From contig NZ_CP034870.1 in NCBI RefSeq assembly GCF_005081185.1, forward strand, positions 566,562 to 577,184: 10,623 nucleotides of DNA. The letters run 5' to 3'. The translations under genes were made by a program, and so were the position numbers. The stretch comes from Buchnera aphidicola (Lipaphis pseudobrassicae) (GTDB taxonomy: Bacteria > Pseudomonadota > Gammaproteobacteria > Enterobacterales > Enterobacteriaceae). Shown here piece after piece: positions 616 through 8,473 of this stretch. Every line of letters starts with the position of its first letter. The stretch's first letter is position 1. The notes under the pieces were generated by a model. It made no database searches, was not told the DNA's origin, and was given only the letters and a program-made list of their open reading frames with translations.

Positions 616-1377
616 TTATATATTAATTACATCAAGCAATTCTATATCAAAAATTAGAGTAGAGTTTCCTGGAATAGTACTAATTTCTTTTTTTCCATAT
701 CCTAAATTAGGTGGTATTATCAACTTAATTTTACCGCCTTTCTTAATATATTTTAAACCTTCTTGCCAACCTAATATAACATCTTTTAACATTAATGATA
801 CAGGTTCACCTCTTTTATAAGAATTATCAAATTCTGTACCATCAATTAAAGTACCTTTATAATGCACAGTAATTTTTGTATTATTTGTTAATGAATCACC
901 CTCTCCTGGTTTTTCTATAATGTATAAAAGACCGCTAGATGTTTTTTTAGCTCCTTTAGTTTTAGAAAAATTTTTCATATATAATTCTCCTCTAGCAAGA
1001 TTTTCTTTTGCATTCTTTTCTAACTGAATTTTAGTGGCGTTATTTAATTTTTCTTCCAATTGTAAAAGAATCGAAGAGATTTCTTCATGAGACAACTGCA
1101 AATTTCCAGAAATTGCGTCTTGAACTCCTTTTAAAAGACTATTTTTATTTAAATGCACACCTATATTTTTTTGTTTTTCAAAAGATTGATTAACGTAATT
1201 TCCTAATGAAACACCTAACGCATAACCTAATTTATCATCATTGTTCGTAAAAGTATTTTTTGTTTCTAAATGCGGCTGAAAATTGATATTATTTAAAGAT
1301 ATTGATTCTGAAAATGATTTTGGAACATATAATATTATACATAATAATATTATTTTTTTTAGAATAAAAAAAATCAT
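616..1377 (-). CDS. fkpA: FkpA, periplasmic FKBP-type peptidyl-prolyl isomerase and chaperone
   Basis: 253 residues, compared with about 270 in E. coli. Residues 1-23 form a signal peptide: a basic pair (KK), a hydrophobic core IILLCIILYV, and a probable SFS cleavage end, so the product should be exported by Sec. Residues about 45-140 match the helical FKBP N-terminal dimerisation domain (KLGYALGVSLGNYV, then charged helices). Residues about 148-250 are the FKBP domain, with binding-pocket residues visible as Tyr173 (VHYKG), Phe183-Asp184 (EFDNSY), Val200-Ile201, Trp204 (GWQEGL), Tyr227 (LGYG) and Phe243. The family assists folding of envelope proteins and isomerises X-Pro bonds. The start is set by a GGGAG Shine-Dalgarno at 1384-1388, six bases before the ATG. 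It is followed by tusD 69 bp on and preceded by the decayed argD. The N-terminal and linker parts diverge more than the FKBP core, as is usual in reduced genomes. Confidence 0.95.
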   Translation of the reverse strand: MIFFILKKIILLCIILYVPKSFSESISLNNINFQPHLETKNTFTNNDDKLGYALGVSLGNYVNQSFEKQKNIGVHLNKNSLLKGVQDAISGNLQLSHEEISSILLQLEEKLNNATKIQLEKNAKENLARGELYMKNFSKTKGAKKTSSGLLYIIEKPGEGDSLTNNTKITVHYKGTLIDGTEFDNSYKRGEPVSLMLKDVILGWQEGLKYIKKGGKIKLIIPPNLGYGKKEISTIPGNSTLIFDIELLDVINI

Positions 1378-1453: not shown

Positions 1454-2580
1454 TTACAGTACTTTTTCTAAAGTATATTGAAATCATTTTATACTTTCTT
1501 TAATAATTATCTTCAGTCATAATTCAAGATGGTGATAAATGAAGAATGTTATCTCTAAATATTAAAAAAATAACAACTTCTTAAGAAAAAAAGTTGTAAA
1601 ATTTTATGTATTCTTTTAGAAAAATTTGATTGCAATACAATCCCTATTAATAAATCTTTATCTTGTATTTTTTGGAAAAATTAAAACGATTATTAATAAG
1701 ATGTAATTTAGAAAATATTTTTTCAGATTTTTTTAAACACCAGATAATAATTTGTTTGTATTTATAACATCAATAATAGACTTTTCTACAGCACAAACTA
1801 ACAGTTTTTTTCATATTTAGTATCATGAATTCCAGATTTTATTATTGACCCAATTTTATTTGTAGTCAATGTTGTACTAATTAGCAATTCTCCACCTAAA
1901 GATTTTACAAAATTTAAAATATTTGGTTTAAACCCATAGTGTTCATAAAAAATAACTTTCTATTTCTTCTCTAGTTTTTATTTCATTAAAAATTAAAATT
2001 ACATTATATTAATTATATGAATCTCTTAATTCTTTTATAAAAGAAATATTTACTAGTATTATACCTTTTTTTTCTTAAATAAGTTCAACTACTATCGCAC
2101 ATGTATCATAACTAATGATGTATTTTACTATTTTAATATCATTAAAAAATTATGAATTATACCTGTATTTTAAAGATTAAAATTTTTAGAACTTTTTAAT
2201 TACCTATCTAAAAAAAACAGTAAAAAAGTACGCCTATAAAACGAATTATAAAAAGAAATTATTTTATTTTTTTAGAATTACAAACTCTACATGAATAATA
2301 GCGCGCTATTTTAAAAACTACTTTATTTACTTCTGCTCTAGAGTTAGAAAATAAAATACGTGATTCAAAACTCAAGAAAACTAACTTTTTAGCTATAAGA
2401 TATATTTCGTTAACAAAAAAAATACTAATATAAAATAATGTTTTATTTTTTTTAATATTTTATTCAATTGTAGATGGCAATAAATTAATGATCTTACTGC
2501 AATTTGTTCAGAAAAATCAATACATTCTTTTCCTCTGTAATCCCATCAAGACAATTTTTTTTTAATATCATATGTATGAT
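1454..2580 (-). pseudogene. argD: Decayed argD (acetylornithine / succinyl-DAP aminotransferase), many stops and frameshifts
   Basis: No intact ORF exists here, but shifting-frame translation on the minus strand follows E. coli ArgD from near the start to the C-terminus. Matching blocks are: WDYRGKECIDFS then IAV..YCH (2545 to about 2474); VNEIYLIAKKLV ... ILFSNSRAEVNKVVFKIARYY (from 2414); KIISFYNSFYRRTF (about 2265-2224); NDIKIVKYIISYDTCAIVVE (2143-2084); FIKELRD ... VILIFNEI (to about 1979); HYGFKPNILNFVKSLGG (about 1942-1891); LLISTTLTTNKIGS; CAVEKSIIDVINTNKLL; DKDLLIGI; and a final LEKVL before TAA at 1454-1456. Two in-frame stops (2075-2077 and 2009-2011) fall where E. coli has Gln (CAA to TAA). 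A frameshift lies in or near the eight-A run at 2415-2422. The Asp of the FDEV motif that binds the PLP ring nitrogen is Asn (1985-1987), while the PLP-lysine codon survives (1903-1905). Its position between fkpA and tsgA agrees with E. coli argD mapping close to tsgA. The N-terminal limit is uncertain by about 100 bases; about 40 N-terminal residues are unrecognisable. Confidence 0.92.
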
Positions 2581-2798
2581 TTTATTAAATATTTAAAAAA
2601 ATTAATTTTTAAAATAAAATATACATTATATTTTATTAAAATTAAACTTAAATATTTAAAATATTTGGTTTAAATAACTTTAAAATTTAAAAAATAGAGA
2701 TTTTTATATAAAATTATTATAAATATATATAAAAATATAAAAAAGTTATAATATCTTAATTTATGTTTTTATAAATTTTATTAAATAAGGTGATGAAG
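2581..2798. other. Extremely AT-rich divergent spacer between the argD relic and tsgA
   Basis: This 218-bp stretch separates the argD relic (minus) from tsgA (plus). The first 180 bases contain only 9 G or C. The lost N-terminal codons of argD would fall in its left part, but nothing there can be aligned. It should carry the tsgA promoter and ribosome binding site. No small ORF or stable hairpin stands out. Confidence 0.6.
2747..2752 (+). promoter_or_regulatory. Candidate -10 box for tsgA
   Basis: A consensus TATAAT lies 46 bp before the tsgA ATG. No convincing -35 hexamer sits 16-18 bp upstream; the region there is only A and T. In DNA this AT-rich, a TATAAT can arise by chance, so support is weak. 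Confidence 0.3.
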
Positions 2799-3962
2799 AT
2801 GAAAAATATTAATCGAATAGGTCTTACATGGATTAGTTTTTTTTCATATGCCTTTACAGGTGCATTAGTCGTGGTTACAGGAATGATAATAGGAAATATT
2901 TCTGATTATTTTCATTTATCTATATCTCGAATGAGTAATACGTTTACTTGTTTAAATGCAGGTATATTACTATCAATAATATTAAATTCTTGGCTCGTAG
3001 AATATATGTCATTAAAAAAACAATTAATTTTAGGATTTATTTTAACAATAACATCTATAATAGGTATAGTATATAGTACTAATATAATTTACTTTTCTGT
3101 AAATATGTTCATACTAGGATTAGTAAGTGGTATTACTATGTCAATTGGTACATTTCTTATTACTTATTTATATTCAGGATCGAAAAGAGGATCTCAACTG
3201 TTATTAACTGACTCTTTTTTTAGTATGTCAGGAATGATATTTCCAATTATTACGGCTTATCTTTTAGAAAAACATATTATTTGGTATTGGATTTATATAT
3301 ATATAGGAGTAATTTACTTATTAATTTTTCTTTTAACAATAAATCTTAATTTTCCAGAATTAAAAAAAAGTAAAAAGAATTTCAAACAAAAAAAAGAAAA
3401 ATGGAACATTAATATTTTTTTATTGTCTATTTCAGCTTTGCTGTACATATTAGGACAATTAAGCTTTATTTCTTGGGTTCCACAATATGTTACTGAAGTG
3501 ATAGAAATAGATATCAAAAAAACAGGTGGATTAGTTAGTAATTTTTGGATGTCTTATATGATTGGTATGTGGTTTTTTAGTTTTTTAATCAAGTTTTTTA
3601 ATCTAAATCAAATGTTTATTCTTTTAACTAGTGTTTCTACATTTCTTATGTATAATTTTATTCATAATCAGAATTTTATACTACTTAAATGTATTATCAT
3701 TGGTTTGGGTTTTTTTTCTAGTGCTATTTATACTATAATTATAACATTAGCATCGTTACAAACAAAAAATCCATCTCCAAAATTAATAAATCTAATTTTG
3801 TTGTTTGGAACAATAGGAACTTTATTAACGTTTATTGTAACTAGTCCAATTGTAGAAAAAAAAGGATTATATGCTACTTTGATCACTTCTAATATATTAT
3901 ATGCAATAGTTTTTTTATTATCTATATTAATTTATTTGAATAAAAATTCTAAAAAATTATAA
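2799..3962 (+). CDS. tsgA: TsgA, major facilitator superfamily transporter
   Basis: 387 residues (E. coli TsgA is 393), predicted inner-membrane protein with about 12 helices: roughly 10-32, 46-68, 77-95, 99-125, 136-158, 161-184, then a basic cytoplasmic loop (KKSKKNFKQKKEKW) near 190-205, and six more between about 207 and 382. Hallmark blocks shared with TsgA are LTWISFFSYAFTGALVVVTG, SNTFTCLNAGILLSI, GLVSGITMSIGTFLIT, LLLTDSFFSMSGMIFP, VSNFWMSYMIGMW and GFFSSAIYTIIITL. The substrate is not established for the family; it was named as a tellurite/selenite-resistance-associated gene. A GTG nine bases upstream and an ATG six bases upstream are in frame, but the ATG at 2799 aligns with the E. 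coli N-terminus (N-RI-LTW) and sits six bases after AAGGTG (2787-2792). It is the only protein gene on the plus strand, divergent from the argD relic and convergent with trpS. It is intact beside a dead neighbour, so it is probably under selection. Confidence 0.94.
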   Translation: MKNINRIGLTWISFFSYAFTGALVVVTGMIIGNISDYFHLSISRMSNTFTCLNAGILLSIILNSWLVEYMSLKKQLILGFILTITSIIGIVYSTNIIYFSVNMFILGLVSGITMSIGTFLITYLYSGSKRGSQLLLTDSFFSMSGMIFPIITAYLLEKHIIWYWIYIYIGVIYLLIFLLTINLNFPELKKSKKNFKQKKEKWNINIFLLSISALLYILGQLSFISWVPQYVTEVIEIDIKKTGGLVSNFWMSYMIGMWFFSFLIKFFNLNQMFILLTSVSTFLMYNFIHNQNFILLKCIIIGLGFFSSAIYTIIITLASLQTKNPSPKLINLILLFGTIGTLLTFIVTSPIVEKKGLYATLITSNILYAIVFLLSILIYLNKNSKKL

Positions 3963-5767: not shown

Positions 5768-6326
5768 CTTAATTTCCCTGTATTAATTCTAAATAAATTC
5801 AATATATAAAATAAAAATAACTATATTTAATATTTTTTATTTTTTAATATATAAAATAAAGAAATCTTGAAAAAATTAATTTTTAATCTTTTAATGATAA
5901 AATAATTTATATTATATAAATTAAAAATTAAAGTGTTAAATATAAAGATAAAAAATAAACTATCACTTACTATTAAATGAAAATTGATATTTTTAATAAA
6001 AATCATAATATAATAATTATATAAATATTATTTTGATCATGTGTTTAGAAAATTAATAGAAGTTTTTTATTTTTTAAAAAGTGAAAATTTAGATGTTAAA
6101 ATTTTTAATTTTATAAGAAATTCATATATAATGTTTTTACTCTTTATAGTTTTATTTTTGTAATTATAAAGTGTTTTATCAAATATATTTATCACTTATT
6201 ATTTAAAACAAATATAAAAAAATGCTATTATTAAAAGAATAAAACTATATAAGAGCAAAAATAAAATCAAAATAAGTGTAAATATATAATATTTAATAGT
6301 TTTAGTTTATTTGATATGATAAAAAT
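5768..6326. other. 559-bp gene-free spacer between aroB and rpe (position of E. coli dam/damX)
   Basis: No ORF with a plausible start or recognisable product is present on either strand. In E. coli the interval aroB-damX-dam-rpe fills this position, so this is probably the eroded remnant or deletion scar of those genes. I could not align any stretch to Dam motifs. The DNA is almost all A and T and contains several AT-only inverted repeats (for example 5903-5911 with 5915-5923), which are expected by chance at this composition. It should hold the rpe promoter, but I cannot fix it. Confidence 0.6.
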
Positions 6327-7973: not shown

Positions 7974-8002
7974 ATTTTTATTATTAAAAACAATTCGTTA
8001 AT

Positions 8003-8032
8003 AAAAACCAGCATTTAAAAACTTTTGCTGGC
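8003..8032 (-). terminator. Intrinsic-terminator-like hairpin in the aroK leader
   Basis: On the minus strand CCAGCA (8031-8026) pairs with TGCTGG (8013-8008) around a 12-base loop, with a G-U pair possible outside (8032 with 8007), and is followed by TTTTTATT. A stem with four G-C pairs is conspicuous in such AT-rich spacer DNA. It points toward aroK and ends about 30 bases before its start codon. It may terminate a lost upstream transcript or attenuate aroKB; the sequence does not decide between them. Confidence 0.5.
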
Positions 8033-8398
8033 AAGATATAAACACAAATCTATAATGCAATAAAATGAATATAAAAAATATCTCATGTATTATTTATTTT
8101 ATATAATGCAACTAAAATAGCTAAACAATCAAAAATAAAAAAATTAATTTTAATTTAAAAGATTTTAATATATTAAATAATACTTTTATTTTTTTATTAA
8201 TAAATTTGATTATTTTAGTTTTATACTTTTATATGAACTAAAAGTATATAGAGAATTATACTTAAATAAAAAATATATTCTATCAAAATCAACATCATTT
8301 TTTTCTATTTTTTAAGAAAATCGATATTTCATGAAATGAAAATCGAAAATATAAAATTATAGAAATATCTTAAAATAAACTTTAATTTAGCAAAAAAC
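8033..8398. other. Gene-free spacer between aroK and the tRNA-Ser promoter
   Basis: No coding region can be supported. The spacer separates the divergent aroK (minus) and tRNA-Ser (plus) and must contain the aroKB promoter. Small structures present are a direct repeat TATAATGCAA (8051-8060 and 8102-8111), overlapping inverted repeats at 8213-8248, and a palindrome flanked by direct repeats at 8316-8346. In the E. coli order hof genes would lie upstream of aroK; none can be recognised. Confidence 0.55.
8213..8248. repeat. Overlapping inverted repeats able to form two alternative stems
   Basis: TATACTTTTA (8222-8231) pairs perfectly with TAAAAGTATA (8239-8248) across a 7-base loop. TTTTAGTT (8213-8220) pairs perfectly with AACTAAAA (8236-8243). 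The two stems share bases 8239-8243, so they are mutually exclusive. Stems of this length can arise by chance at this A+T content. Confidence 0.4.
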
Positions 8399-8428
8399 TT
8401 GACGTAATTATTTTTTTTAGATTAAAAT
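8399..8428 (+). promoter_or_regulatory. Sigma-70 promoter for tRNA-Ser(GGA)
   Basis: TTGACG at 8399-8404 (five of six to the -35 consensus) and TAAAAT at 8423-8428 (five of six to the -10 consensus) are 18 bp apart and end 45 bp before the mature tRNA. Transcription would start near 8435. This is the best-matching promoter I noticed in the window. Confidence 0.65.
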
Positions 8429-8473
8429 AGTTATCTAATTAATTAAAAAATAAAATAAAAATTTTTCCAAAAT

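What the first reader, a model, noticed from the sequence alone, without database searches (positions are those of the whole stretch)
1454..2580. argD, normally a key symbiotic gene, survives only as a pseudogene
The sequence shows a full-length but broken ArgD relic between fkpA and tsgA: in-frame stops, several frameshifts, and the PLP-binding Asp codon changed to Asn. By established knowledge ArgD acts as acetylornithine aminotransferase (arginine) and also as DapC, succinyl-DAP aminotransferase (lysine and meso-DAP). Arginine and lysine supply to the host is a main function of this kind of symbiont, and meso-DAP is needed for peptidoglycan. The inference is that this lineage either lost both routes, or moved these steps to another aminotransferase (for example SerC-like), to the host, or to a co-symbiont. 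The decay is recent enough that nearly every block is still alignable.
Basis: partly seen in the sequence, partly recalled or inferred. Interest (0 to 1): 0.8.

Follow-up and report, generated by a model that had tools for sequence, protein, structure and literature searches.

The report
Dead argD gene in aphid symbiont
In this aphid symbiont the argD gene is truly dead, as it is in about a third of the related genomes examined; it fell together with other genes that make ornithine for arginine, while the lysine genes tested on either side of its second job stay intact, so another enzyme probably now does that one step.

Summary
Between fkpA and tsgA lies an argD relic: 354 of 405 codons align, with 6 in-frame stops, about 10 frameshifts and the PLP aspartate codon changed to Asn. 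No second argD was found in the genome; the only other family member is BioA. The loss is not rare: argD is intact in 23, broken in 4 and unrecognisable in 9 of 36 Buchnera genomes, by roughly 6-9 separate losses (inferred from a tree). Here argC and argE are dead too, while argF, argG and argH are intact, so the front (ornithine) half of arginine synthesis is gone and arginine must start from imported ornithine; [quoted passage not shown] The lysine/DAP route is not lost: dapB, dapD, dapE and lysA are found in all 36 and murE is intact here, leaving DapC as the gap. SerC, open in all 36, is the likeliest substitute (inferred). Two points go beyond the finding. argA and argB stay under strong purifying selection here although argC, argD and argE decayed nearly neutrally along this branch. 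One relative (G018) lost argA, argB, argC and argE but keeps a constrained argD, as expected if argD also serves lysine.

The parts
1457..2545 (-). argD pseudogene (ArgD residues 404 down to 37; 6 in-frame stops, about 10 frameshifts)
   Evidence: frameshift-tolerant alignment, shuffle control, tblastn blocks in three frames, whole-genome PF00202 hits
1985..1987 (-). codon of the PLP-binding Asp226, now AAT (Asn)
   Evidence: invariant Asp in the six-sequence alignment; role of the residue recalled
1903..1905 (-). codon of Lys255 (PLP Schiff-base lysine), still AAA
   Evidence: invariant; role of the residue recalled
2546..2789 (.). spacer to tsgA; would hold the first 36 argD codons, no longer recognisable
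   Evidence: alignment starts at residue 37
616..1377 (-). fkpA, intact neighbour downstream of argD
   Evidence: NF008150 hit
2790..3962 (+). tsgA, intact divergent neighbour
   Evidence: NF002982 hit

Best explanation
The feature is a decayed argD in a Buchnera lineage that has lost the ornithine-forming half of arginine synthesis. Shown: argC, argD and argE are dead in this genome and have decayed nearly neutrally over most of its branch; argF, argG and argH are intact; the tested enzymes around ArgD's second (DapC) step, namely DapB, DapD, DapE and LysA, are intact, and so is MurE. Inferred: arginine is now built from ornithine supplied by the aphid, and the succinyl-DAP aminotransferase step for lysine and meso-DAP is done by another transaminase, most likely SerC, an aminotransferase that is open in all 36 genomes. 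The argD loss itself is relaxed decay, not an adaptation.
For: Relic and lesions. argC and argE broken, argB, argG and argH intact. argA intact. argF 36 of 36. dapD 36 of 36, DapE 36 of 36, dapB 36 of 36, lysA 36 of 36, asd found in 36 of 36, murE intact in G000. SerC-type ORF of 361-368 aa in 36 of 36 (only the G000 copy was named by a SerC model). Near-neutral decay: dN on the G000 branch 0.208 for argD, 0.172 for argC, 0.174 for argE against dS 0.24, 0.19 and 0.17, versus dN 0.028-0.076 for eleven intact genes. G018 keeps a constrained argD after argA, argB, argC and argE died, which fits a separate lysine duty. Published precedents: Buchnera-Ua lost argECB, argA, argD, with arginine-rich phloem sap or host ornithine aminotransferase suggested as reasons (PMC3164680 passages); Buchnera of Sipha maydis keeps only ornithine-to-arginine while the host makes ornithine (PMC12013274 passages); aphid ornithine aminotransferase is up-regulated in bacteriocytes of two aphids (PMC10067822 passages); E. 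coli has a DapC activity besides ArgD (PMC4086706 passages).
Against: SerC as DapC is not shown here: SerC shows no consistent rate change in argD-less lineages (G000 0.065 against 0.040 in its sister, G020 0.041 against 0.038, G005 0.027 against 0.044) and only 2 of 372 alignment columns with even a weak shared residue. BioA is open in 35 of 36 and could serve. argA and argB remain constrained in G000 and G020, which a simple 'ornithine half is gone' story does not explain. carA, carB, dapF and hisC were not tested; dapA and asd of G000 could not be read whole because stretches read N. No host data were available.
Confidence: 0.6

Rival explanations
1. Same loss, but the DapC step is done by BioA, HisC or a host aminotransferase rather than by SerC.
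For: BioA is a relative of ArgD (PF00202) and matches the ArgD model TIGR00707, though below its cut-off (210.5 against 410.05 bits). No genome of the 36 lacks both ArgD and BioA (one BioA loss only, so this is weak). Published host transaminases already finish several Buchnera pathways (PMC10067822 and PMC12013274 passages).
Against: BioA uses a different donor and substrate (recalled). A host enzyme would need succinylated intermediates to cross membranes (reasoning). SerC is the enzyme whose substitution I recall from E. coli genetics. HisC was not tested here.
Confidence: 0.2
2. Ornithine synthesis continues: ArgA and ArgB still work, and the dead ArgC, ArgD and ArgE are replaced by lysine-route paralogues (Asd, SerC or BioA, DapE).
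For: argA and argB have branch dN 0.037 each in G000 and 0.036 and 0.024 in G020, far below the 0.17-0.21 of argC, argD and argE in G000 and the 0.174 of argD in G020. DapE and ArgE both match TIGR01910, below its cut-off; kinship of Asd and ArgC is recalled. Genome reduction through a substrate-ambiguous enzyme is argued in PMC4306246 (title and start of abstract; passages).
Against: Asd and DapE show no clear acceleration in G000, G020 or G005 (Asd of G000 on 336 codons only). Both argA and argB are missing from 9 of 36 genomes, so the route is dispensable. argA is mildly relaxed: 15 (G000) and 16 (G020) changes at 352 otherwise invariant columns against 0-10 in nine controls.
Confidence: 0.12
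3. This lineage has lost lysine and DAP synthesis as well.
For: argD is dead and it is the textbook DapC.
Against: dapB, dapD, dapE and lysA open in 36 of 36 and murE intact here; it is hard to see why they would persist in all 13 argD-less genomes without use.
Confidence: 0.03
4. The lesions are sequencing or assembly errors.
For: A+T-rich homopolymers; some stretches of this genome read N.
Against: Sixteen separate lesions, about 55% identity to intact relatives, a near-neutral substitution rate in this gene but not in eleven intact genes, and argC and argE equally broken.
Confidence: 0.01

Closest known systems
Loss of ornithine biosynthesis in Buchnera of Uroleucon ambrosiae (argECB, argA, argD; PMC3164680)
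   Same: argD, argC and argE non-functional.
   Different: Here argA and argB are intact and constrained, and argD, argC and argE are still recognisable. The paper's main text holds no word beginning with 'dap', so the lysine gap is not treated there under that name.
Buchnera of Sipha maydis (PMC12013274, passages)
   Same: Only the ornithine-to-arginine part is kept; host makes ornithine; lysine route described as complete.
   Different: A different aphid subfamily, with a Serratia co-symbiont; the main text does not mention argD (0 occurrences).
ArgD/DapC bifunctional aminotransferase of enterobacteria
   Same: Sequence homology, and position beside fkpA as in all 23 intact Buchnera loci.
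   Different: No open frame, PLP Asp codon changed; cannot encode the enzyme.

Membership tests
Functional ArgD (acetylornithine/succinyl-DAP aminotransferase) | homology to ArgD over most of its length | tested here: met
   residues 37-404 align, score 707 vs at most 42 in 20 shuffles
Functional ArgD (acetylornithine/succinyl-DAP aminotransferase) | single open reading frame of about 404 aa | tested here: not met
   6 stops and 10 frameshifts; no ORF of 60 aa or more listed there
Functional ArgD (acetylornithine/succinyl-DAP aminotransferase) | PLP-binding Asp and Lys (roles recalled) | tested here: not met
   Asp226 codon is AAT (Asn); Lys255 codon kept
Decaying Buchnera pseudogene | intact orthologue at the same place in relatives | tested here: met
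   23 of 36 genomes with intact argD, fkpA beside it in all 23 loci; tsgA on the other side was checked for one intact genome only, G018
Decaying Buchnera pseudogene | loss of protein-level constraint | tested here: met
   branch dN 0.208 [0.177-0.249], dS 0.24
Ornithine-branch loss as in Buchnera-Ua | argC, argD and argE dead | tested here: met
Ornithine-branch loss as in Buchnera-Ua | argA and argB also lost | tested here: not met
   both open and constrained in G000
Ornithine-branch loss as in Buchnera-Ua | argF, argG, argH kept | tested here: met
   carA and carB not tested
Ornithine-branch loss as in Buchnera-Ua | host supplies ornithine | not testable with these tools
   no host data; published support for other aphids only
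SerC as substitute DapC | intact SerC wherever argD is lost | tested here: met
   36 of 36, thus all 13 argD-less genomes; one copy named by model
SerC as substitute DapC | sequence signature in argD-less lineages | tested here: inconclusive
   2 weak columns of 372, no consistent rate change
SerC as substitute DapC | succinyl-DAP aminotransferase activity of Buchnera SerC | not testable with these tools
   needs an enzyme assay or complementation

The most novel reading that the evidence does not exclude
After argC, argD and argE died, ArgA and ArgB kept a selected function in at least two Buchnera lineages (G000 and G020), and ArgB alone in G005, which may share its losses with G020. The boldest reading is that the ornithine route still runs, with the lysine-pathway paralogues Asd, SerC/BioA and DapE doing the three missing steps, so that arginine and lysine synthesis are collapsing onto one set of promiscuous enzymes. 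A weaker form is that ArgA and ArgB serve an unknown purpose.
Probability: 0.13. Interest if true: 0.78.

Novelty: new member of a known kind. Interest (0 to 1): 0.4.

Why it matters
The relic is ordinary decay, but the survey around it makes two points testable. First, 13 of 36 Buchnera genomes have lost the textbook DapC while keeping the tested enzymes on both sides of the step, so which enzyme does that step in an obligate lysine provider is a direct question with SerC as the first candidate. Second, in the partly dismantled genomes G000, G020 and G005 argC, argD and argE are dead while argA and argB (G000, G020) or argB alone (G005) stay selected, which argues against the pathway losing its use as one unit.

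Tried and rejected
Rejected: assembly artefact (sixteen lesions plus a near-neutral rate); a second argD elsewhere (only BioA); loss of lysine/DAP synthesis; recent decay; a known RNA family inside the relic (Rfam at gathering scores finds only the tRNA in the window). Tried without result: naming the strains through genome contigs (none; one search kept the best 80 of 564 matches, all non-Buchnera, not used further); the plasmid collection (no match); convergent change in SerC of argD-less genomes (2 weak columns of 372); acceleration of Asd or DapE (none clear). An apparent internal gap in Asd of G000, which I first noted as a possible sign of takeover, proved to be a stretch reading N and is withdrawn. 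Scripts stopped with errors and one search ran with the wrong strand for most loci; their ArgD rows were discarded and one search replaces them. For the dN tables I used chosen trios (16 of 36 genomes entered), not all 36; genes whose length differed by 12% or more from the reference were dropped by rule there, and so tsf of G020 and G029, frr of G034, G005 and G035, and argG of G018 are missing from it. In the tree, columns with more than 3 gaps were dropped and the tsf ORF is short in G013, G020 and G029.

Literature: ten searches of an open-licence library. I found no report of argA/argB constraint after argC/D/E loss, or of the DapC gap across Buchnera, but most subscription papers are not held there, including a large Buchnera comparative genome paper that I only recall, so absence from print is not claimed. 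Of the papers cited I saw passages only, plus one section of PMC3164680 and the title and start of abstract of PMC4306246 in a listing.

Full report
What is there. The window is G000:C1:566562-577184 of a 652-kb Buchnera genome in three contigs. Curated models name its genes tusD, fkpA, tsgA, trpS, rpe, aroB, aroK, deoD and deoB, with one tRNA-Ser. Between fkpA and tsgA no ORF of 60 aa or more is listed, but the minus strand matches ArgD in all three frames. A frameshift-tolerant alignment to an intact Buchnera ArgD covers residues 37-404 at window 2545-1457, with 354 aligned codons, 193 or 194 identities, 6 stops and 10 frameshifts. The score of 707 compares with at most 42 over 20 dinucleotide shuffles. 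The Asp226 codon is now Asn and Lys255 is kept.

No other copy. PF00202 over the whole genome gives two pieces of this relic and one intact gene, which is BioA (NF005940, 702.6 bits against a cut-off of 625).

How common the loss is. Over the 36 genomes of the genus held here, argD is intact in 23, broken in 4 (G000, G005, G006, G020) and without a match in 9 (G003, G004, G011, G013, G016, G019, G024, G025, G027). In those nine the fkpA-tsgA interval was fetched and holds no ArgD match at E 0.01. Four handles match published chromosome lengths exactly: G016 is Buchnera-Ua, G002 Ak, G029 Tokyo (A. pisum) and G001 Sg (Table 1 of PMC3164680). On a six-protein tree (1378 columns, midpoint root) argD-less genomes fall in several places: G003, G000, G027 and G006 form one clade (support 100); G011 is sister to an argD-bearing genome (100); G013, G019 and G016 form another clade (100); G005 and G020 lie among argD-bearing genomes with low support (25-32); G025 sits at the base of an argD-bearing clade (85-100); G024 and G004 stand apart (39). 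Merging everything that the tree allows gives six losses. G006 still had a normal argD rate until recently (0.041) and shares no stop with G000 in argC, argD or argE, so the first clade probably holds four losses, giving about nine. G005 and G020 share two argD stop positions (codons 75 and 229), one in argC (222) and one in argE (288), so they may be one event; but G005 also shares stop positions with the distant G000 (argD 154, argC 51), so shared stops can arise in parallel.

The rest of the arginine route. In G000 argE and argC are broken in several places while argB, argG and argH are open; argA is open and complete; argF is present in 36 of 36. ArgE was found intact in 23 genomes and as a remnant in G005; argC reached the cut-off in 23, of which the G006 copy has an in-frame stop at codon 174; the stops that one search reports inside several other argC matches of near-complete open frames were taken to be the genes' own ends and not checked one by one. 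argB is open in 27 and argA in 25, with a broken argA in G005. Thus 22 genomes hold all five genes. The partial states are: G006 (argC and argD newly broken), G000 and G020 (argC, argD, argE dead; argA, argB alive), G005 (argB alone alive), G027 (argB alone), G018 (argD alone), and 8 genomes with none. The ornithine half is therefore what is being lost. This is in print for Buchnera-Ua, where arginine-rich phloem sap or host ornithine aminotransferase was suggested as the reason (passages of PMC3164680), and for Buchnera of Sipha maydis (passages of PMC12013274).

Lysine and DAP. dapD, DapE, dapB and lysA are present without stops in 36 of 36; asd is found in 36 of 36; murE is intact in G000. 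dapF was not searched, and dapA and asd of G000 cannot be read whole because stretches read N. So in 13 genomes DapC is the one step among those tested that is missing. E. coli has a DapC activity besides ArgD (passage of PMC4086706 citing Cox and Wang); that SerC is one such enzyme is recalled, not looked up. A SerC-type gene is open in 36 of 36, the G000 copy named by model. SerC sequences show no clear signature in argD-less genomes. G018 is the natural control: argA, argB, argC and argE are lost, yet argD is open and its dN on that branch (0.114-0.120) is like that of serC (0.116), pyrH (0.120-0.121) and tsf (0.133), somewhat above dapD (0.088-0.093), map (0.082-0.090) and rpsB (0.076-0.085). 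Mild relaxation is not excluded, but the gene has no stop or frameshift and its rate is that of working genes, which is what one expects if argD is held there by lysine synthesis. Taken with the 13 argD-less genomes, ArgD looks useful but replaceable for lysine.

Timing and the puzzle of argA and argB. With G006 as sister and G008 as outgroup, the G000 branch has dN 0.208 [0.177-0.249] for argD, 0.172 for argC and 0.174 for argE, with dS 0.24, 0.19 and 0.17, so these have been nearly neutral for most of the branch (misalignment around frameshifts may inflate these values). On the same branch argA has 0.037 [0.025-0.049] and argB 0.037 [0.021-0.054], like argG 0.034, argH 0.028 and dapD 0.039. 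G020 repeats this (argD 0.174; argA 0.036; argB 0.024), and in G005 argB has 0.029 against 0.128 for argD; in G027 argB is relaxed (0.112). Had the route lost its use as one unit, argA and argB should show about 0.17-0.21. argA is mildly relaxed: 15 and 16 changes at 352 otherwise invariant columns in G000 and G020, 11 in G006, against 0-10 in nine controls. argB is not: 4, 4, 6 and 5 changes at 182 columns in G000, G020, G006 and G005 against 0-7 in controls, but 25 in G027. So argA and argB outlived the rest under selection. I cannot say why. Takeover of the missing steps by Asd, SerC/BioA and DapE would explain it, but Asd and DapE show no clear acceleration, and other lineages dispense with the route.

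Verdict. Confirmed pseudogene; ordinary kind; the interpretation needs narrowing to the ornithine half plus a DapC gap. Confidence: pseudogene about 0.99, ornithine-half loss about 0.93, SerC as substitute about 0.5-0.6. 

Noticed in passing
G000 and G020 (loci L040, L034, L218, L035); G005 (L036): argA and argB are under strong purifying selection while argC, argD and argE decay; in G005 argB alone is kept and constrained.
   Followed up: partly
G018 (loci L010, L043): argD open and constrained although argA, argB, argC and argE are lost; the same genome has a broken bioA.
   Followed up: partly
G024 (587,277-base chromosome): No match at all to the murE model, which picks up further weaker matches (probably other Mur ligases) in the other 35 genomes, suggesting that the peptidoglycan precursor route is gone in this Buchnera, while lysA, dapD and DapE remain.
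   Followed up: no
murE in G001, G007, G009, G018, G022, G023, G028, G030: murE matches are split or contain stops in these 8 of 36 genomes; several may be single frameshifts.
   Followed up: no
window 5768-6326 and 7974-8472: Two spacers of about 500-560 bases (rpe-aroB and aroK-tRNA-Ser) with no ORF of 60 aa or more listed; possibly older gene relics.
   Followed up: no
G006 (loci L037, L045): Youngest stage of decay: argC has one in-frame stop and argD one frameshift and one stop, while argA, argB and argE are intact.
   Followed up: partly
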